DNA of 18,795 nucleotides. It comes from Deltaproteobacteria bacterium (lineage in GTDB: Bacteria > Bdellovibrionota_B > Oligoflexia > Oligoflexales > Bog-1112). Of the stretch, positions 77-18,795 are shown piece after piece. A program made the position numbers and the translations under genes. How positions within the stretch are numbered: the first letter of the stretch is position 1; every line of letters starts with the position of its first letter. Below the pieces are notes generated by a model. It had not been told where the DNA came from. It did not search any database and saw only the letters and a list, made by a program, of their open reading frames with translations. The stretch covers positions 1-18,795 of the forward strand of contig JACPKR010000065.1 in assembly GCA_016186945.1 (NCBI GenBank), given 5' to 3'.

Positions 77-111
77 GTGGGCCAGGTCGCTACTACTATT
101 CAACATAGTAA

Positions 112-140
112 CTCGCCCCTCCAAACCTCCCTCTCCCTAA
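112..140. repeat. Degenerate copy of C-rich interspersed repeat
   Basis: The stretch CTCGCCCCTCCAAACC continuing to CTCTCCCTAA matches, with a few C/T changes, the C-rich cores at 4391-4420 (inside the lytic transglycosylase gene) and 11124-11153 (inside the glycosyltransferase gene). All three share the pattern CTCGCCCC-CC-AA-CCCC-CTCTCCCT in the same orientation. This copy lies between genes, just past the end of ctaB. The rest of 1-166 holds no recognisable gene. Confidence 0.55.
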
Positions 141-2091: not shown

Positions 2092-2165
2092 GCAAGGAGG
2101 TGGTGTCCCTCAGGGGAACTCTTGGAGGAACCAGCTGCGCAGTTTCCTCCAAACCACCTCCTTGC
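2092..2165. repeat. Palindromic element upstream of ctaA (copy 1)
   Basis: Outer arms GCAAGGAGGTGGT (2092-2104) and ACCACCTCCTTGC (2153-2165) are a perfect 13-bp inverted repeat. Inner arms TTGGAGGAA (2122-2130) and TTCCTCCAA (2144-2152) pair perfectly around CCAGCTGCGCAGT. A 17-nt extra segment, itself holding CCCTCAGGGG, bulges on the left side. A second copy, in opposite orientation and without the bulge, lies at 17739-17794. The rest of the 2068-2313 gap is A-rich on the + strand and shows no gene or clear promoter. Confidence 0.85.
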
Positions 2166-2313
2166 ATTATCAAGGTTTAGGGAAAACGAGGTGTCCAACC
2201 CATCCATATGGGAAAGAAGACACAGAAAAAAAATAAAGCGGGAAAAGTAAGAATCAATAAAGCTAACTGTAGCCAACCAAGGTTTTCCTTCCACGGGTCT
2301 CTTTTTGGTTTGC

Positions 2314-4440
2314 TCATTGCTTCGCTCCTTCGGGAAGATCTGACGGCAGATTTTTTATATAATCGACGCTTCTTTTTATCACAACTTTTTCATTAACGGC
2401 ATTGAGGAATTTGTAGACATACATGTTTCGCCATGCCGCAGAAACGTAATGGCGCGTTTCTTCAAACGGAATCAACTCCACCCAAAGTAGAGTGTCCTCA
2501 TGCTGGCGTTGTGTCAACCATCTGTCAACCGCAAATTCTCCTGCATTATAGGCAGCGATCACAGCCGGTGGGTTGTTTGAAAAATTTGCAGCAAGTTTTT
2601 TCAAGTAACGAGAGCCGAGCTTCAAATTGACGTCTGGTTCAAAAAGACGCTCGACAAGACGGGAGTCCAAGCCTGTTTCTTTTGCGACATCGCGAGCCGT
2701 GGTGGGAATAAGTTGCATGAGGCCCAGCGCCCCTGCATAGCTTGCAGCGTCTTTCTCGAAGAGGCTTTCCTGACGCGCGATCGCGTACAAGAGGTCGACA
2801 TCGACAGAACTCTCCTTGGCGCTCTCAACAAAAACGTCTGTGTAAGATGAGGGGAAGTAAATGTAAAGTTGCTCAGGTGAGGTGCGCCAGAAAGCACTCT
2901 GGACTTCGTTCAGCATTTCCGACACATGAATGGCGTTGCGGTAACGTCCTGCCGCATACAGGAGGCGGGAGAGGTAGAGAAAGGCATCTTTATGCCTGGC
3001 AACGGGGAACTTGCGTGTCATGAGGGAGTAAAGCTTTTCAGCTGCCACTTCTGCCCAGTCAAACATTTCTGCCGCGACGAAGATTTCCGCCCGGAGTAGA
3101 GCCATGCTAATTTCTGGGTTGCTGCGCATGATTGCGAGGTCATAGTCGTGGCTGGCATTCAAACGCATCGCAAGCACTTTGGGGTCTCCGTAGGCTTTCT
3201 GCCAAAGCTCCTGACTACGGATCCCTGCAAGTTCCGGCGCAACGATTGAGTAAAAGTCGAGGGGGAATTTTTCTTCAAGATTTGTCAGAAGCGTTTCCTT
3301 TTCCCTAAGGTCTCCGCGTTCTGCGGCTATGCGCGCAAGCCAGAAATAGAGTTTAGGCAGAAGGTTTGGCGAATTTGTTTTTGCCAGCAGGGCAGTCCAT
3401 TTTTTTTCTGCCAGACTCAGGTTCTTGTCCATGTAATGGTATAGCCCTTGAAACCACAGAAAGCGTTCTTCCCATTCCTGGGGAAGTTTGGCGATGGCAA
3501 GGCCACGCTCGGCAAATGCTACTGCTTTCTTATACTGCTTTTTTTCCACCGCGATACGGTGGGCCAAAATGTGCAGGGCTTCTGCTTCAAATGCGATGAG
3601 TGCCTCTCGATCTTTTGCTGTCTTTGTAAGAGAGCTACGGGAGGCGTCCACGATCGTCAGCGCTTTTTCCGTAAGGTTTCTCGCTTTGCGGTAGTCACCG
3701 ACAAGGGTGCGGTACCGAGCAGCGAATAGATAGTCGTCGATTTTTCTGAACATAAACTCGGGCAAGGTTAGACCCATGTCTTGAGGTCGAGGGGAATCAC
3801 GCTCCCACTGGTTAATGAGGTCTAAGTATGTTGCTGCGGCCTCTTTCCTCATAGCATTTCGACGCTGCATAGAGACGAGCAATTGATGGCCGACAAGGGA
3901 GTAGGCATGGAGGGATTTGCTTTCCATCAGTGGCCCGAGCGCTGTTTGGAAAAGGGAGATGGCCTGTTTTTCACTCTGAGAACAGCGGGTCACAAGCGCT
4001 CGCCAGTAAAGTTCAAGAGGACCTTTTAGGGTGGCTACCCACGCTTGCCACTGATCGCGATTGGATGTTTCGCAGTACTGCTGCGAAGTTTTGACGAGCA
4101 TGAGGTCGGAGGGAGGGGGACCTTTTTGTTTAGGAGGAGGGATCACTTTTGCTGCTTTGCTTTTCTCTTTTTCTCGAAGGGGAGGGGGAGGGATGGTGTT
4201 GTGGGTTTCCCAATAATCGACGATGTCTTGGATGGCTTTTTTTTGGAGAGGGTCGTCGGCTATTATTGTTTTCAGACGTTGCCATTCGGAGGGAGGCTTT
4301 GCTTTAAGTCCGGTGCAAACAAGCAAGCTAAGCAGCATCACTGCCCATCTTGGGGGAGGCGACCCTTCGCTTTGCTCAGGGCAGGCTTTTCCCTCGCCCC
4401 CCCAACCCCCTCTCTCCCTGGGCTTGTCCCTGGCTTTCAT
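2314..4440 (-). CDS. Slt-type soluble lytic murein transglycosylase
   Basis: Predicted exported enzyme of 708 residues that cleaves the MurNAc-GlcNAc bond of peptidoglycan to a 1,6-anhydro product. The C-terminal SLT/lysozyme-like domain (about 540-680) has the catalytic Glu in IARQESLF (E558), then GALGLMQLIP (571-579) and AAYNAG (629-634). Residues 130-520 are helix-rich and superhelical or TPR-like, as in Slt70. A proline-rich linker lies at 84-110. The hydrophobic signal segment RWAVMLLSLLVCTGLKA is at 31-47. The first 30 residues are encoded by two interspersed repeats (4361-4384 and 4391-4420), so the true start may be the internal ATG at 4338 (M35). The ATG at 4440 is given because it overlaps the upstream stop as ATGA. 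The first residues are arginine-rich, an odd but usable n-region. Likely periplasmic; I assign the family and not a specific paralogue. Confidence 0.9.
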   Translation of the reverse strand: MKARDKPRERGGWGGEGKACPEQSEGSPPPRWAVMLLSLLVCTGLKAKPPSEWQRLKTIIADDPLQKKAIQDIVDYWETHNTIPPPPLREKEKSKAAKVIPPPKQKGPPPSDLMLVKTSQQYCETSNRDQWQAWVATLKGPLELYWRALVTRCSQSEKQAISLFQTALGPLMESKSLHAYSLVGHQLLVSMQRRNAMRKEAAATYLDLINQWERDSPRPQDMGLTLPEFMFRKIDDYLFAARYRTLVGDYRKARNLTEKALTIVDASRSSLTKTAKDREALIAFEAEALHILAHRIAVEKKQYKKAVAFAERGLAIAKLPQEWEERFLWFQGLYHYMDKNLSLAEKKWTALLAKTNSPNLLPKLYFWLARIAAERGDLREKETLLTNLEEKFPLDFYSIVAPELAGIRSQELWQKAYGDPKVLAMRLNASHDYDLAIMRSNPEISMALLRAEIFVAAEMFDWAEVAAEKLYSLMTRKFPVARHKDAFLYLSRLLYAAGRYRNAIHVSEMLNEVQSAFWRTSPEQLYIYFPSSYTDVFVESAKESSVDVDLLYAIARQESLFEKDAASYAGALGLMQLIPTTARDVAKETGLDSRLVERLFEPDVNLKLGSRYLKKLAANFSNNPPAVIAAYNAGEFAVDRWLTQRQHEDTLLWVELIPFEETRHYVSAAWRNMYVYKFLNAVNEKVVIKRSVDYIKNLPSDLPEGAKQ
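4361..4384. repeat. Short imperfect palindromic repeat in the transglycosylase 5' end
   Basis: GACCCTTCGCTTTGCTCA followed by GGGCAG is the sister copy of 1118-1142. On the coding strand it gives the peptide CPEQSEG. It is an imperfect palindrome (CCCT..GC....GC..AGGG) and lies 6 nt from a second, C-rich repeat. Confidence 0.6.
4391..4420. repeat. C-rich interspersed repeat in the transglycosylase 5' end
   Basis: CCCTCGCCCCCCCAACCC continuing to CTCTCTCCCTG matches the cores at 112-140 and 11124-11153 in the same orientation. On the coding strand it gives the peptide RERGGWGGEGK, close to RERGVWGGEG in the glycosyltransferase. It separates the annotated start codon from the signal peptide. 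Confidence 0.65.
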
Positions 4441-10169: not shown

Positions 10170-11375
10170 TCATTCTTGGCATTGGGAATAGAGGGCAAGG
10201 ACGTCCTTGCAGACCGACACGATATCGAATTTTTCAATTTTTTCAAGTGCGTTGACGCAAAATGCTCGGGCAAGCTTCCTATTTTCGATAATCTGGCAGC
10301 AGTAGGCAGCAAATTCATCGACTTCCTTGGGAGAAGCCAGAAAGCCTGTGCGTCCATGTTCGACGAGGTCTCCGACCCCGCCCGAGTGTGACGCTACGAC
10401 GGGAGTTTGGGCAGCAAATGCCTCCATAATCACGTTCCCTAAAGCTTCATCGACCGCGGTACTGACGAGAAGGTCAGCTAATTGAATGAGCGCAGAAGCA
10501 TGAGGGGTAAATCCGCTGAGTCTGCAAACTTTGCCTAGCCCCCGCTCGGAAACCATACGCTCGAGCGTGCCCCGCAGCGGACCTTCTCCCACAAGGAGGA
10601 AGTGGAGAGGGCGCTTTTCGTTTTGTCCCGAAACGAGAAGTTTCTGAACTATCTCCAGAAAGAAGTCGGGACGTTTCTGCCGCGTAAGAGCGCCGACGCT
10701 GATTACCAGAAACGCGTCCTCAGGGATGCCGAATGACTGTCGTAGATGCGCAGGCGGAGGAGCAGAGGACTCGTGATGTAAATCAATGCCGCTTGGGATC
10801 AAGGTGAGTTTGTCGGGCGATTTAATAAAGCTTCGCATACTTTCCATCACGGCGTGGGAAATACAGATGTGCTTTCTGATCGCAGGATGGCTGAATTTTA
10901 TGTGCGAAAACCAGCCGGGTTTTTTTATCATCCGGCAGGTGTTTATTATGGGGGTTTTTTTCTTTCCAGACATCGACATCGACATCGCCAGAAGTGCAAA
11001 GGTCAGTGCTTTGCTATCGTGTGTGTGGATGAGGTCAAAACCTTTTTTTTGTCCTGCGGTCGACGCGTCGATAGGTGGGAGATCATTCGAATGTCCAGGC
11101 TCATCACCTGGGGGAGCGACGGTTCCCTCGCCCCCCCAAACCCCCCTCTCCCTAGTGGCCCTCTCCCTAATGGCCCTCTCCCTAGGGAGGAGGAGGGGGT
11201 GTGCGAACTCGACAGTTTCCCAGGCCTCGTTCTTTGAACGTTCTGCCAGCGCTGATCCTTTCAGGCAAAAGAGGGTTTGTGTCAGCCCCCATTTGTGGAG
11301 GTTTTGAAGAAGGTACAGAACTTGTTTTTCCCCACCCCCCCAATTTTTCTGTGTCGAAATGTGTGCGACCCTCAT
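10170..11375 (-). CDS. GT4-family glycosyltransferase with in-frame repeat insertion
   Basis: Predicted 401-residue sugar transferase of the GT-B fold. The N-terminus has AHISTQKNWGGGEKQVLYLLQNL, and FDLIHTHDSKAL (113-124) is typical of the acceptor domain. The donor domain has LVISVGALTRQKRPD (223-237), HFLLVGEGPLRGTLE (258-272) and the retaining-GT motif DEALGNVIMEAFAAQTPVVASHSGG (309-333). Residues about 63-100 are low-complexity (RERAI, RERAT, RERGV, then GGEG) and come from a C-rich repeat at 11124-11188. They sit between two family blocks and are probably a tolerated surface loop. A hexamer GACATC repeated three times (10969-10986) encodes MSMSMS. It overlaps the deacetylase stop as ATGA. 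Acting with the deacetylase on a cell-surface glycan is an inference from the neighbourhood. Confidence 0.88.
   Translation of the reverse strand: MRVAHISTQKNWGGGEKQVLYLLQNLHKWGLTQTLFCLKGSALAERSKNEAWETVEFAHPLLLPRERAIRERATRERGVWGGEGTVAPPGDEPGHSNDLPPIDASTAGQKKGFDLIHTHDSKALTFALLAMSMSMSGKKKTPIINTCRMIKKPGWFSHIKFSHPAIRKHICISHAVMESMRSFIKSPDKLTLIPSGIDLHHESSAPPPAHLRQSFGIPEDAFLVISVGALTRQKRPDFFLEIVQKLLVSGQNEKRPLHFLLVGEGPLRGTLERMVSERGLGKVCRLSGFTPHASALIQLADLLVSTAVDEALGNVIMEAFAAQTPVVASHSGGVGDLVEHGRTGFLASPKEVDEFAAYCCQIIENRKLARAFCVNALEKIEKFDIVSVCKDVLALYSQCQE
10969..10986. repeat. In-frame hexamer microsatellite
   Basis: GACATC is repeated three times without change inside the glycosyltransferase gene, coding Met-Ser three times. 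Copy-number change would keep the frame. Confidence 0.7.
11124..11188. repeat. C-rich interspersed repeat with three 15-bp subrepeats
   Basis: The core at 11124-11153 matches 4391-4420 and 112-140. It then runs into three 15-bp units beginning CCCTCTCCCTA (11144-11158, 11159-11173, 11174-11188). Since 15 is a multiple of three, the units encode a five-residue period (RERxx) in the glycosyltransferase and keep the reading frame. Confidence 0.75.
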
Positions 11376-12103
11376 GCGTGTGCCTCTCGATGTTTGTCTT
11401 CGTATCCCGTGAGAAGCTTCGCAAGGAACAGGGGTGGGGTCACCCGTCGGGTAACATGCACGCGGGGGAGAGTGTGAAGGTCATCCCCTACTTTTGCCCG
11501 CAAACGTTGCGTGGTCACTGCGGTGGAATACCCAGCGTCTCTGACTAATCGTATCGTTTCGGCGTCAAATTCTCCGTAAGGGTAGCAGAAATCGGAGATA
11601 GGGCATTGGAAGCTAGTTTCAAGGAAAGCTTTGGACTCCTCGATTTCCCGCGCGGCAAGGGTAGGCTCAATCCTGCACAGGTGGGCGTGTGAGTGGGTGT
11701 GGGAGCCGATGGACATACCGGCATCTAGCCAGCTTCGGACCTGGGGGGTACTCATGAGGGGGCTTTCCTGGACGTCTTGTCCCACGGCCCAAAGGTTGCT
11801 CCTACCGAGAAGTCCCGAGACGAGGTAGCAGCTGGCCGTAAAACCGAATTTCTGCAAAACCGGCAGCGCTTCCGTGTAATTGTCCAGATAGCCATCGTCA
11901 AAACTTATGCCGACAACTTTTCCTTCCTTTTCTCCGCGCAGATAGGGCACGAGGTCATGGATAGCCAAACCTTTGTAACCGAGAAGGGACAGGAGTCTCA
12001 TCTGCCAGGCGAAAGAATGAGGGTGTACATAGAGAGACGACAACCTTTTAGAACGCGGAGCGGGGGCAATATTGTGGTACATGAGGATGGGGATTTTTTT
12101 CAT
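11372..12103 (-). CDS. Polysaccharide deacetylase (NodB homology domain)
   Basis: Predicted 243-residue metal-dependent carbohydrate esterase (CE4) that removes acetyl groups from an N-acetylated glycan. Motif 1 is GISFDDGY (D69, D70), motif 2 is GSHTHSHAHL with the metal-binding H135 and H139, and motif 3 is DFCYPYGEFD. The opening IPILMYHNIAP is typical of the PgaB/IcaB-like and xylanase/chitin deacetylase subgroups. No signal peptide is visible, so it may act in the cytoplasm or at the inner face of the membrane. It begins in the ATGA overlap with ribF and ends in the ATGA overlap with the glycosyltransferase, so the three are translationally coupled. The substrate cannot be read from the sequence. 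Confidence 0.9.
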   Translation of the reverse strand: MKKIPILMYHNIAPAPRSKRLSSLYVHPHSFAWQMRLLSLLGYKGLAIHDLVPYLRGEKEGKVVGISFDDGYLDNYTEALPVLQKFGFTASCYLVSGLLGRSNLWAVGQDVQESPLMSTPQVRSWLDAGMSIGSHTHSHAHLCRIEPTLAAREIEESKAFLETSFQCPISDFCYPYGEFDAETIRLVRDAGYSTAVTTQRLRAKVGDDLHTLPRVHVTRRVTPPLFLAKLLTGYEDKHREAHA

Positions 12104-13077
12104 AGAAGCTTTTTTGCTTGCGCCACGTCTCTAGCGATTTGCATTTTGAGTTCGTCGGGTCCTGAGAAGGCGACATTGTCGCGGAGCCTGTGCTTTAAAT
12201 AATAGCATGCTTTCAAGTTGTAAAACGTTTGTTCAGGGGAATACCTTTGGAGGAGGTGGGCTTCAACTCGTATGTCGGCTTCTTTTTTCTGAAATGTAGG
12301 GCGATGCCCAATGCTAAAAACGGCGGGAAAAAGGCTGTCTTTGCCTGACATGAAAAGGGGAAAGGCGGGGGCCTTCGACATGTTTTCCAACCAGACATAA
12401 CCGCAATAAACCCCTTCCTTGGGGACCAGTTGGTCTATTGAACTTAGGTTGGCAGTGGGGAACTGGAGCGTCCGGCCCATCTTATCACCGTGAGTGATGG
12501 TCCCGGCTATGAAATAAGTATGGCCTAGCATTTGCGCAGCCGTTTCTACATCGCCTGTACTAAGAAGCAATTCTCGTATGCGCGTGCTGCTGATCGGCTG
12601 ATCCTGAAACAGGACGGGCGGAACAATGTTGACGATCAAGCCGTCCGCTTCACCCTGTTTGCTCAACCACCGCACGTTTCCGAGGCGGTGAAAACCGAAA
12701 TAGAAATTCTCTCCCACGGTGATTGCTTTTGCCCGCAAGGTGTCGCGAAGGAACTTGGCGTAGAAATCTTCATGACTCGTGTGAAAAAGCTCATCGTTGA
12801 ACCTTAGCACGAAAGGATGGGTGATCCCGAGTTCGAGGAACGCTCTCATCTTCTGCTCGGTCGTGAGCAGATCCACAGTGGAGGGCGACGGACGAAAGTA
12901 CTCCTGTGGATGAGGATCGAAAGTCAGAGAGACGCTGGGAACACCGAGCGTTTTCCCAAGGCGACCAGTTATCTCGATAAGCTCGCGATGGCCAAGGTGG
13001 CAACCATCGAAATTACCTATCGTGATGACACAGCTGTCGAAGTCTATCTGGTTCTGGAAAAATGAAAACCTAGTCAA
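12100..13077 (-). CDS. ribF: Bifunctional riboflavin kinase / FMN adenylyltransferase
   Basis: Predicted 325-residue enzyme that phosphorylates riboflavin to FMN and adenylates FMN to FAD. The N-terminal nucleotidyltransferase domain has VITIGNFDGCHLGHRELI (17-34), LTFDPHPQEYF (51-61) and ISSTRIRELLLS (162-173). The C-terminal kinase domain has HGDKMGRTLQFPTANL (196-211), GVYCGYV, SIGHRPTF (255-262) and the likely catalytic Glu in VEAHLL (E272). The usual G before FPTAN is Q here. There is no ATG in a suitable place: the start appears to be TTG at 13077, with a weak GGTG upstream. Only 14 bp further up begins a large repeat element, so the leader or promoter of this operon must run through it or start in it. 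No FMN riboswitch is seen. Confidence 0.92.
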   Translation of the reverse strand: MTRFSFFQNQIDFDSCVITIGNFDGCHLGHRELIEITGRLGKTLGVPSVSLTFDPHPQEYFRPSPSTVDLLTTEQKMRAFLELGITHPFVLRFNDELFHTSHEDFYAKFLRDTLRAKAITVGENFYFGFHRLGNVRWLSKQGEADGLIVNIVPPVLFQDQPISSTRIRELLLSTGDVETAAQMLGHTYFIAGTITHGDKMGRTLQFPTANLSSIDQLVPKEGVYCGYVWLENMSKAPAFPLFMSGKDSLFPAVFSIGHRPTFQKKEADIRVEAHLLQRYSPEQTFYNLKACYYLKHRLRDNVAFSGPDELKMQIARDVAQAKKLL

Positions 13078-13091
13078 TGTGCACCGATTTA

Positions 13092-13330
13092 TATAGTGTT
13101 CAAGATAATCAATTTGGGGAAAAACTTTTACGAGTCTGTCATCCCGCTTTTACGAGTCTGTCATCCCGCTTTTACGAGTCTGTCATCCCGCTTTTACGAG
13201 TCTGTCATCCCGCTTTTACGAGTCTGTCATCCCGCTTTTACGAGTCTGTCATCCCGCGGCCTGACCGCGGGATCCAACTTGTTCGAGGAAGGCTGCCCCT
13301 TTGGATCCCGCGGTCAAGCCGCGGGATGAC
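13092..13330 (+). repeat. Composite repeat: leader, six 22-bp tandem units, paired palindromes (copy 1)
   Basis: Three parts in order. (1) A 33-bp leader, TATAGTGTTCAAGATAATCA to AAAAA (13092-13124). (2) Six identical 22-bp units, each starting CTTTTACGAG and ending TGTCATCCCG (13125-13256), head to tail with no spacer. (3) A 30-bp inverted repeat (13248-13277 and 13301-13330, one mismatch, 23-nt loop). Each arm of part 3 is itself a palindrome: ATCCCGCGG, a 5-nt loop, CCGCGGGAT (13251-13273 and 13305-13327). It fills almost all of the gap between the ribF start (13077) and the next gene's stop (13359); nothing else is seen in that gap. The leader and array recur at 18640-18795. Confidence 0.95.
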
Positions 13331-13358
13331 AGTGCAAAAAAGGTCCTCTCCACAAATT

Positions 13359-13913: not shown

Positions 13914-13977
13914 AAGCAAGTCCTGTCGCAAATGTTTAACCATCTGAAACAATTAGCATTTTGTACGTGTGAGGGCA

Positions 13978-14760
13978 ATGAAATCTATTCCCCCCCTTAA
14001 ACTTGGTCTCGTGGGAAGACGCATCAGCCACTCCCGTTCGAGAGAACTCCATCAAGAACTTTTGGCGCAGCGGGGCCTGGTGGGGACTTATGAAGTTTTT
14101 GATATCGAGGCGGACGAAATGCCGACAGTCCTGGCAAGGTGCTGGGAAGACGGCTACGTCGGACTTAATGTCACAACTCCGTACAAGCAAGTGGTGGCAA
14201 ATTCGGTAGGAGCAGAAGAACCTGTCAATACGCTCTGGCGTGGGGCTGATTTTTGGCAAGGCGTTTCTACAGACGGCGTAGGTTTCGTGCGGGGCTTAGC
14301 GAGGATAAGCTCGCTGCCCCCTACCTTTTGGCGGACGGTTATCATTCTGGGTGCAGGCGGAGTGCTTCCTTCCCTGCTGGGGTGTTTCGAGGAGGGTCAA
14401 TCCGTGCAGATCCTGCGCAGAAGCGCGCGCAATGACGAGACGTTACGGAAGGTCTGTCCGAAGGCGCACATGGCTGATTTGAATCTGGAGAACTTCAAGA
14501 AATGTCTGATGAAGGATCCTGCTTCCCTCGTCATTCAGGCGAGCAGTGCGCCCCTGCATGGGGACGAGATGATGTATCTTACGCCTGCTCTTGAAATAGG
14601 GGCCGCATGCCTCATCGATCTTGTGTACGGTAGACCCTCCCAACTTTACAGCAGGGCGAGGGAACTTGGCATCCTGTGCCAGGACGGTTCGGCTATGCTG
14701 GAAGAGCAGGCGAAAGAATCGCAAAGGCTGTGGTTCGATGGAGCCGGTGAGCGGAATTGA
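13978..14760 (+). CDS. aroE: Shikimate 5-dehydrogenase
   Basis: Predicted 260-residue NADPH-dependent enzyme that reduces 3-dehydroshikimate to shikimate. The substrate-binding part has GRRISHSRSRELHQE, equivalent to GxPIxHSxSPxxHN, and GLNVTTPYK with the catalytic Lys (K70). The conserved Asp is in STDGVGF (D99). The Rossmann motif is VIILGAGG (121-128), and the C-terminal signature is DLVYGR...DGSAMLEEQAKES. The protein is divergent (R in place of P in two motifs, S in place of N in NTDG), but the catalytic pair is kept. ATG 13978 is preceded closely by GAGGG; GTG 13969 is an alternative. The last seven codons and the stop lie inside the antisense of a tRNA gene. It is free-standing, not fused to a dehydroquinase. 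Confidence 0.88.
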   Translation: MKSIPPLKLGLVGRRISHSRSRELHQELLAQRGLVGTYEVFDIEADEMPTVLARCWEDGYVGLNVTTPYKQVVANSVGAEEPVNTLWRGADFWQGVSTDGVGFVRGLARISSLPPTFWRTVIILGAGGVLPSLLGCFEEGQSVQILRRSARNDETLRKVCPKAHMADLNLENFKKCLMKDPASLVIQASSAPLHGDEMMYLTPALEIGAACLIDLVYGRPSQLYSRARELGILCQDGSAMLEEQAKESQRLWFDGAGERN

Positions 14761-14814
14761 ACCGCTGACCTACGCTTTACGAAAGCGTCGCTCTACCGAC
14801 TGAGCTACACCGGC
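14739..14814 (-). tRNA. tRNA-Thr (anticodon CGU)
   Basis: On the minus strand a full cloverleaf folds. The acceptor stem is GCCGGTG with CACCGGC, the D arm is GCTC-AGTCGGTA-GAGC, and the anticodon stem is ACGCT/AGCGT with loop TTCGTAA. The anticodon is therefore CGT, reading ACG (Thr). The variable loop is AGGTC, and the T arm is AGCGG-TTCAATT-CCGCT. The discriminator is T, followed by an encoded CCA (14739-14741). The 3' half overlaps the end of aroE on the other strand by 22 bp, and the 5' end is 19 bp from the queG-rluA start codon, so its promoter must lie within that gene's beginning. TGTAAT about 12 nt upstream could be a -10 box, but no good -35 is seen. Confidence 0.96.
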
Positions 14815-14833: not shown

Positions 14834-16729
14834 ATGATCGGACGTGAAGACATTCGAATTTTATTGGAGAGTGAGGGGCTTTCTTTGCTGGGGGTCGTCC
14901 GCCTGGCGAGTGAACCCCGCTTTGTTTTTTTTGAAAAGTGGCTTGCCGAGAAAAAGCACGGGGAGATGGCCTATCTGGAAGCTTATAAGGAACAACGACG
15001 ACATCCTCAGAATCTTCTACCTGGAGCTAACACAGCGATCATATTCGGCCTTCCTTACTATCTGGGAGACACGCTGCGAAGTCCGGGTGGGCCCCGGATC
15101 GCCCAATATGCAAGGTTGCGGGATTATCATAAAGTTATGCGAAAAAAAGGCGAGTCCGTCCTCCGCGCTTTCGATGGGGCTTCCTCGGGAAAGGTTTTTG
15201 TCGACACGGCCCCTTTGTTGGAGAAAGCTCTCGCTGCCAGAAGCGCCGAGGGCTTCATAGGCCGCAACACCCTTTTCATCCATCCGAAGAAGGGAAGTTA
15301 TTTCCTCCTTGGTGAGATTTTCCTGACAGCGGAGTTAGAACCTGACAATGTGGCAGACATCGACCCGCTGAGACGTTCGCCAGAAGGTGGTTGTGGGTCG
15401 TGTCGGCGGTGTGAAGTGCATTGCCCGACAGGTGCTCTCTCCGATTACAGCCTGGACGCGACCAAGTGCCTTGCCTATTACACGATTGAACACCGGGGGC
15501 CTATTCCTGGCGAGTATAAGAAGCATCTCGGCAAATATGTATTTGGATGTGACATCTGCCAGCTTGTTTGTCCGTATAATCGGCACTTGGAAATTCAAAA
15601 ACACGAGTTGCGCTTCCCGGAAACACCCCCTCTTTCCGAAATGGCGACGATGAGTCAGGAGTATTATGAAAAGACATTTGGCGGCACACCGATGACCCGG
15701 GCAAAACGAGCAGGGCTTCAGCGCAATGCTCAGATCGCCCTGTCTGTTGAGGCGAAACGAATAGAACTTCCGCCTACCCCCGGTGGACCGGCAAATTACC
15801 GCAGCTTGGGGAAGCCGATCACTCAAGCTGATGTCGGCTTGCGGATCGACGTCTACCTTGCTCGGGACTTTCTCTTTCATTCGCGCAGCGCATGGCAGTC
15901 GTTGCTACGGGAAAAAAAAGTCCATGTAGGGGAGCGCTCCGTTAAATCTTCCTATTTACTCCGAGGGAATGACGAAGTGTCGTATTTCTGCCCGCAGGTT
16001 CAAGAGCCTGCGGTCAATAAGGACCTTCGGGTTTTGTGGGAAAAAGACGGGATAATAGCGGTGCTCAAACCGTCCAACCTTCCCATGCACGAGGGAGGAG
16101 CCTACCGCTTGAATACATTCTGTCAGGTTCTTAAAGACACGGTCGGGCCGGAATGGGCACCAACACACCGTCTGGACCGGGAAACCAGTGGGCTTGTGTT
16201 GTGTGCAGACACCCAAGCACTTCGCAACGAACTGTCAGAATCCTTTCGACAGCGGACCATGGAGAAAATGTACTACGCGATCGCGTGCGGCCTCCCTGAG
16301 CGTGAAGTCTTTGAAGTTGACCAGCCCCTGGGTGAAACGAAAAGGACAAGTTTTAGACTCAAGCACTGGGTGATTCCCGACGGCGCACCTGCTCAAACTT
16401 TGTTTCGGGTCAAGGAACGTTCAGGGAAATTCACGCTTCTCGAAGTCTTCCCCAAAACAGGACGGACACACCAGATCAGGGTGCATGCGTCCTGGTCGGG
16501 TTTACCGCTGGTCGGTGACAAAAAGTATTACCCCGACGAGTCCATTTATCTTGAATATCTCGATCATGGCTTCACAGACAGAGTGAAGGGTGCATGCATC
16601 GCAGATAGACTGTGCCTGCACGCGGCGTCAGTGCGCTTCATTCATCCACTCGATGGAAAAAGTTACGAAGTAAGTACGGAAGTGCCTGCTGATATGAAAA
16701 AAATCTGGGATCAATGTCAAAGCCAGTGA
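14834..16729 (+). CDS. Fusion: epoxyqueuosine reductase (QueG) plus RluA-family pseudouridine synthase
   Basis: One 631-residue frame carries two RNA-modifying enzymes. Residues 1-305 are QueG, which reduces epoxyqueuosine to queuosine at tRNA position 34 using cobalamin and two [4Fe-4S] clusters. The catalytic Asp is in VDTAPLLEKALA (D124); the ferredoxin motif is CGSCRRCEVHCP (C187, C190, C193, C197), with C212 and GCDICQLVCP (C239, C242, C246). The QueG part stops at RNAQIALS, where HEAT-like repeats usually begin. After a short linker come an S4-type RNA-binding domain (about 330-385) and an RluA catalytic domain (about 398-625) with HRLDRETSGL (D448), RTMEKMYYAI and KTGRTHQIRVH. The RluA target (rRNA or tRNA) is not readable. 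No frame disturbance is seen at the join. The 3' end overlaps the convergent lipase gene by 92 bp. Confidence 0.93.
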   Translation: MIGREDIRILLESEGLSLLGVVRLASEPRFVFFEKWLAEKKHGEMAYLEAYKEQRRHPQNLLPGANTAIIFGLPYYLGDTLRSPGGPRIAQYARLRDYHKVMRKKGESVLRAFDGASSGKVFVDTAPLLEKALAARSAEGFIGRNTLFIHPKKGSYFLLGEIFLTAELEPDNVADIDPLRRSPEGGCGSCRRCEVHCPTGALSDYSLDATKCLAYYTIEHRGPIPGEYKKHLGKYVFGCDICQLVCPYNRHLEIQKHELRFPETPPLSEMATMSQEYYEKTFGGTPMTRAKRAGLQRNAQIALSVEAKRIELPPTPGGPANYRSLGKPITQADVGLRIDVYLARDFLFHSRSAWQSLLREKKVHVGERSVKSSYLLRGNDEVSYFCPQVQEPAVNKDLRVLWEKDGIIAVLKPSNLPMHEGGAYRLNTFCQVLKDTVGPEWAPTHRLDRETSGLVLCADTQALRNELSESFRQRTMEKMYYAIACGLPEREVFEVDQPLGETKRTSFRLKHWVIPDGAPAQTLFRVKERSGKFTLLEVFPKTGRTHQIRVHASWSGLPLVGDKKYYPDESIYLEYLDHGFTDRVKGACIADRLCLHAASVRFIHPLDGKSYEVSTEVPADMKKIWDQCQSQ

Positions 16730-17733: not shown

Positions 17734-17738
17734 TTAAA

Positions 17739-17794
17739 GCAAGGAGGTGGTTTGGAGGAAACTGCGCAGCTGGTTCCTCCAATGACTTCCTTGC
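17739..17794. repeat. Palindromic element upstream of the lipase (copy 2)
   Basis: Outer arm GCAAGGAGGTGGT (17739-17751), inner arms TTGGAGGAA (17752-17760) and TTCCTCCAA (17774-17782), outer right arm TGACTTCCTTGC (17783-17794, with mismatches). About 44 nt from the inner arm to the outer arm equal, in reverse orientation, 2122-2165 next to ctaA. It lies 18 bp upstream of the lipase start. Confidence 0.85.
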
Positions 17795-18639: not shown

Positions 18640-18795
18640 TATAGTGTTCAAGATAATCAATTTGGGGACAAACTTTTACGAGTCTGTCATCCCGCTTTTA
18701 CGAGTCTGTCATCCCGCTTTTACGAGTCTGTCATCCCGCTTTTACGAGTCTGTCATCCCGCTTTTACGAGTCTGTCATCCCGCTTTTACGAGTCT
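18640..18795 (+). repeat. Composite repeat: leader and 22-bp tandem units (copy 2, cut by window end)
   Basis: The 33-bp leader (18640-18672) equals 13092-13124 except for one A-to-C change. It is followed by five complete 22-bp units (18673-18782) identical to those of copy 1, and 13 nt of a sixth. Orientation is the same as copy 1. Whether the paired palindromes follow cannot be seen. Confidence 0.95.

What the first reader, a model, noticed from the sequence alone, without database searches (positions are those of the whole stretch)
14834..16729. QueG and an RluA-type pseudouridine synthase in one polypeptide
The frame keeps all the key residues I can identify for both enzymes: QueG D124 and the cluster cysteines, RluA D448. 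The S4/RluA module begins exactly where QueG proteins normally carry C-terminal HEAT-like repeats that help hold tRNA. This suggests the S4 domain took over RNA binding, or that two modifications are made on one tRNA. I do not know this architecture from described QueG proteins.
Basis: partly seen in the sequence, partly recalled or inferred. Interest (0 to 1): 0.65.

Follow-up and report, generated by a model that had tools for sequence, protein, structure and literature searches.

The report
QueG–RluA fused RNA-modifying enzyme
In one uncultured Oligoflexales bacterium, two neighbouring genes for RNA-modifying enzymes (one finishing queuosine in tRNA, one making pseudouridine) have merged into a single gene; in its nearest relative the same two genes still overlap by eight bases, so this looks like a recent, probably opportunistic fusion and not a new system.

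Summary
Window 14834-16729 (+) is one 631-codon frame: a QueG core (residues 1-305) with all catalytic residues, a short linker, then a complete S4+RluA pseudouridine synthase (322-631). I found no other such fusion: none in the 57 other phylum genomes held, none in 180 plasmid records with QueG or RluA matches, none among 25 genome loci with QueG relatives. In the same-genus genome, queG and rluA sit at the same locus (ribF, aroE, queG, rluA) as separate genes overlapping by 8 nt. The fusion equals a net 118-nt loss across that overlap. It cost QueG one ~40-residue HEAT-like repeat, which Bacteroidota QueGs also lack. The RluA module belongs to a class-wide subfamily outside E. coli RluA, RluC, RluD and TruC. 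Members of that subfamily are fused to biotin ligase-CoaX (Bdellovibrionales) or CoaX alone, partners without a known RNA role. I favour a lineage-specific fusion of neighbouring genes, both activities probably retained, with no demonstrated functional coupling. 'S4 took over tRNA binding' and 'two modifications on one tRNA' remain untested. The fusion rests on one draft assembly; reads were not available.

The parts
14834..15748 (+). QueG (epoxyqueuosine reductase) module, residues 1-305, keeping HEAT repeat 1 but lacking the ~40-residue second repeat of its relatives
   Evidence: TIGR00276 236 bits over 14-310; DYH 97-99, D124 and eight cluster cysteines; tail comparison
15749..15796 (+). 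Linker, residues 306-321 (EAKRIELPPTPGGPAN), at the site of the net 118-nt loss relative to G001
   Evidence: junction translation, comparison with G001
15797..16729 (+). S4 plus RluA-type pseudouridine synthase module, residues 322-631, catalytic D448 in HRLDRETSG; no ATG of its own near its start, only TTG codons at 15806 and 15839
   Evidence: PF01479, PF00849, TIGR00005; tree; internal starts
14739..14814 (-). tRNA-Thr(CGT) between aroE and queG, 19 nt from the fusion's start codon
   Evidence: closely similar tRNA sequence, interrupted by an NN assembly join, at the same place in G001
13969..14760 (+). aroE, syntenic upstream neighbour
   Evidence: synteny by tblastn
12100..13077 (-). ribF, syntenic divergent neighbour
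   Evidence: synteny by tblastn

Best explanation
The gene encodes a two-enzyme polypeptide made by fusion of neighbouring genes. The ancestral locus had divergent ribF, then aroE, queG and rluA. In the genus, queG and rluA overlapped by 8 nt (ATGTATGA). In this lineage a net loss of 118 nt removed QueG's terminal HEAT-like repeat, the queG stop codon and the rluA start codon, and brought both into one frame with a short linker. Shown: the frame, the intact catalytic residues, the split state in the closest relative, the synteny, and a queuosine pathway context (tgt and queA in the genome). Inferred: the N-terminal half reduces epoxyqueuosine-34 to queuosine on tRNA, and the C-terminal half isomerises uridine in a still unknown RNA, each acting on its own. 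The fusion most likely fixes a 1:1 ratio and co-translation and does not create a new activity.
For: Single intact frame. Both domain families hit. Same-genus G001 has overlapping separate genes in different frames at the same locus; junction distance 193 nt there against 75 nt here. ribF-aroE-queG-[opposite gene]-rluA in G013 and G020, ribF-aroE-rluA in G007, ribF-aroE-queG in G002, G016, G038. tRNA-queG spacing is also shorter here than in G001 (19 vs about 215 nt), which fits local compaction. The fusion's RluA half is not on a long branch (0.30). tgt and queA are present, and this is the only QueG match in the genome. The RluA subfamily is fused to unrelated partners in sister lineages.
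Against: One assembled genome only; no reads, no second strain. No expression, activity or substrate data. The linker has no counterpart in G001, so the history may be a deletion plus small insertion rather than one deletion. The AlphaFold model is too poor (mean pLDDT 53.9; RluA half mostly under 50) to say anything about packing of the halves.
Confidence: 0.72

Rival explanations
1. The S4/RluA module took over the tRNA-holding role of QueG's lost HEAT-like repeats, so the fusion works as one tRNA-binding machine.
For: The junction lies directly after HEAT repeat 1 and the second repeat is gone. S. thermophilus QueG has three HEAT repeats at residues 258-372 (PMC4646009).
Against: Bacteroidota QueGs of about 308-316 aa end at the same point with nothing attached, so the later repeats are dispensable in many lineages. 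In S. thermophilus the concave face of the repeats packs on the ferredoxin domain, as described in PMC4646009. The same RluA subfamily stands alone in most relatives.
Confidence: 0.1
2. The fusion makes two modifications on the same tRNA, queuosine-34 and a pseudouridine in the same anticodon arm.
For: E. coli RluA itself modifies tRNA position 32 (annotation), so the family can act on anticodon loops. Both genes are linked in two families of the order.
Against: The module lies outside the clade of the E. coli enzymes and scores far below all equivalog cutoffs, so nothing ties it to tRNA position 32. Its other fusion partners are biotin ligase and pantothenate kinase. Locus neighbours ribF and aroE are unrelated to tRNA.
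Confidence: 0.1
3. Assembly or consensus artefact: the two genes are separate in the real genome.
For: Single draft assembly; identical 22-nt tandem arrays lie at 13125-13257 and at the contig end, so the contig has assembly-prone repeats.
Against: The difference from G001 is a net 118 nt, not a one-base slip; no N at the junction; codon composition is continuous; gene order agrees with G001; the repeats lie about 1.6-2 kb or more away from the ends of the fusion gene and not in it.
Confidence: 0.08

Closest known systems
QueG, epoxyqueuosine reductase (TIGR00276; structures 5d6s, 5d08)
   Same: Full catalytic core, DYH motif, catalytic Asp, double 4Fe-4S cysteines
   Different: Lacks the repeats after HEAT 1 and carries an RluA-type enzyme at its C-terminus
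RluA-family pseudouridine synthases with S4 domain (RluD, RluC; TIGR00005)
   Same: S4 plus PseudoU_synth_2, HRLD motif with catalytic Asp, GRTHQIRVH motif
   Different: A separate subfamily of this bacterial class, not RluD (which this genome has at C52); here fused to QueG
BirA-CoaX-RluA and CoaX-RluA proteins of relatives in the same class (found here)
   Same: Same RluA subfamily at the C-terminus, joined to an unrelated metabolic enzyme
   Different: N-terminal partner is biotin ligase/type III pantothenate kinase instead of QueG

Membership tests
QueG (TIGR00276) | Whole-protein score above the equivalog cutoff | tested here: met
   236.4 bits against 200
QueG (TIGR00276) | DYH motif, catalytic Asp, cysteines for two 4Fe-4S clusters | tested here: met
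   D97 Y98 H99, D124, C187/190/193/197/212/239/242/246; reference motif in PMC4646009
QueG (TIGR00276) | C-terminal HEAT-like repeats beyond the first | tested here: not met
   Match ends at model position 309 of 337; order relatives keep 33-57 residues more. Not obligatory for the family: Bacteroidota QueGs also lack them
QueG (TIGR00276) | Reduction of epoxyqueuosine in tRNA | not testable with these tools
   Only context: tgt and queA present in the genome
RluA family pseudouridine synthase (TIGR00005 / PF00849) | Domain score above cutoff | tested here: inconclusive
   PF00849 95 bits over cutoff 26.8; TIGR00005 186-189 bits, just under 192.7, while the orthologue in G002 scores 214.7
RluA family pseudouridine synthase (TIGR00005 / PF00849) | Catalytic Asp in HRLD motif | tested here: met
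   D448 in HRLDRETSG
RluD / RluC / TruC / RluA of E. coli (equivalogs) | Equivalog score or membership of the clade | tested here: not met
   121, 121, 85, 73 bits against cutoffs 351, 378, 328, 286; separate clade with support 100/99

The most novel reading that the evidence does not exclude
A bifunctional tRNA-maturation enzyme that installs queuosine-34 and a pseudouridine on the same GUN-anticodon tRNAs, with the S4/RluA half delivering the tRNA to a QueG core that has lost its terminal repeats.
Probability: 0.1. Interest if true: 0.6.

Novelty: new variant of a known kind. Interest (0 to 1): 0.36.

Why it matters
It is a domain architecture I could not find elsewhere, caught close to its origin: the same locus is still split, with an 8-nt gene overlap, in the nearest relative. 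It gives a small test case for whether fusing RNA-modifying enzymes couples their work or is a by-product of gene order. The wider result is that an uncharacterised class-wide RluA subfamily has been fused more than once to unrelated enzymes; its RNA target is unknown.

Tried and rejected
Frameshift joining of two genes: rejected, the frame is single and the other frames are closed. Fusion common in relatives: rejected for the 58 phylum genomes held. RluA half as the genome's RluD: rejected, RluD is at C52. Wider phyla by the genome search: not possible, centres must be genome handles. RluA relatives in viral contigs: none. AlphaFold of the full chain with a nearly QueG-only alignment: poor model, not used. 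Literature: no open-access paper found describing a QueG-RluA fusion or a CoaX-RluA fusion; a systematic survey of metabolic gene fusions (PMC4921024) does not mention either in its main text.

Full report
What is there. The frame 14834-16729 on the + strand is a single uninterrupted ORF of 631 codons. Residues 14-310 match the QueG equivalog above its cutoff, and 335-625 match the RluA subfamily just below its cutoff, with separate Pfam hits to QueG_DUF1730, Fer4_16, S4 and PseudoU_synth_2. The best solved relatives are the two QueG structures (5d6s, 5d08) and E. coli RluC and RluD. D124, D448 and the eight cysteines of the QueG half are in place. D97-Y98-H99 is the DYH active-site motif described for S. 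thermophilus QueG in PMC4646009. The other two frames have stops throughout the junction, and third-position GC is similar in both halves.

Is it an artefact? The genome is a 2.66-Mb, 76-contig assembly, 91% complete. A named relative at the locus is an Oligoflexales metagenome genome (L032), whose QueG is identical to that of the same-family genome G006. The single same-genus genome held, G001, has queG (350 aa) and the rluA-like gene in two different frames that overlap by 8 nt, ATGTATGA. From the conserved RNALIA codons to the conserved YRxLG codons the distance is 193 nt in G001 and 75 nt in the window, a net loss of 118 nt. That is not the mark of a one-base error. No reads were available, so an assembly error cannot be fully excluded.

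Locus history. tblastn of the window's proteins finds ribF divergent from aroE, followed by queG, in G002, G016, G038 and G001. rluA follows queG directly in G001, and after an opposite-strand reading frame in G013 and G020 of another family. In G007 the order is ribF, aroE, rluA, with queG gone from the locus. The rluA tree pairs the window with G001 (98/93) inside a group with the rest of the family and G013/G020 (99/97); the queG tree groups the window with G001 and G013/G020 with moderate support. The fusion is therefore the last step of an older neighbourhood. Spacing from the tRNA-Thr gene to queG has also shrunk, from about 215 nt in G001 to 19 nt here, and the aroE frame runs into the antisense tRNA (14739-14760), which fits local compaction by deletion.

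How far it spreads. None of the other 57 genomes of the phylum gave a full-length match. None of 180 plasmid records with a QueG or RluA match covered 80% of the query, and none of the 25 loci has an ORF that matches both halves. Literature searches found no description. Most phyla could not be sampled, so rarity outside this phylum is only weakly tested.

What was lost. S. thermophilus QueG has three HEAT repeats at residues 258-372, the first of which contributes residues to the active site (PMC4646009). The fusion keeps the first and loses the rest. Order relatives keep only 33-57 residues after the conserved RNALIA helix, about one repeat, and most of the Bacteroidota QueGs end at about 308-316 residues with nothing after it. 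So the loss is mild, and the claim that S4 stepped in for tRNA binding is not needed to explain a working QueG.

What the RluA half is. In a tree with E. coli RluA, RluC, RluD and TruC it falls into a clade of its own (support 100/99) that spans Oligoflexales and Bdellovibrionales-side relatives; the genome's other RluA-family gene groups with E. coli RluD. In family f12 this subfamily is the C-terminal third of proteins of about 1000 residues that begin with biotin ligase and type III pantothenate kinase domains, and G055 has a 601-residue CoaX-RluA protein. The subfamily thus tolerates N-terminal fusion to partners with no known RNA role. This weakens the inference from fusion to shared substrate.

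Mechanism. Most likely the two halves act independently: QueG reduces epoxyqueuosine-34 on GUN tRNAs (the genome has tgt and queA), and RluA makes pseudouridine in an RNA not yet known. The RluA half has no ATG of its own, only two TTG codons without a clear ribosome site, so it is presumably made as part of the fusion. Function of both halves is inferred from conserved residues and ordinary divergence, not measured.

Verdict.

Noticed in passing
L060:841-3840, L073:1172-4267, L102:212-3580, L062:1315-3120: RluA orthologues of the fused module are the C-terminal part of BirA-CoaX-RluA proteins (about 1000-1120 aa) in family f12 genomes and of a CoaX-RluA protein (601 aa) in G055; no paper found describing this. 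Domains confirmed by Pfam for L060, L073 and L062 only.
   Followed up: partly
window 13125-13257 and 18673-18795: Identical tandem arrays of a 22-nt unit (CTTTTACGAGTCTGTCATCCCG), 6 and 5.6 perfect copies, the second running off the window end; found nowhere else in the genome. The first is followed by a 32-nt inverted repeat at 13246-13332.
   Followed up: partly
window 2122-2169 and 17735-17782: 48-nt near-perfect inverted repeat pair 15.6 kb apart.
   Followed up: no
window 108-138, 4389-4419, 11123-11153: Three copies of a C-rich 31-nt repeat; two lie inside ORFs as apparent in-frame inserts (start of the lytic transglycosylase-like ORF and inside a glycosyltransferase-like ORF), reminiscent of repeat elements inserted in coding regions.
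   Followed up: no
window 14739-14760: The 3' end of the aroE frame overlaps the antisense tRNA-Thr(CGT) gene by about 22 nt.
   Followed up: no
G000:C12:67938-68555, G001:C116:2370-2984, G005:C50:2308-2922: These genomes have short, high-scoring CoaX genes (about 206-225 bits, frames 264-307 aa), while most other order members have CoaX in frames of about 475-615 aa at roughly 60-120 bits, suggesting gene replacement. The partner in the long frames was not checked.
   Followed up: no
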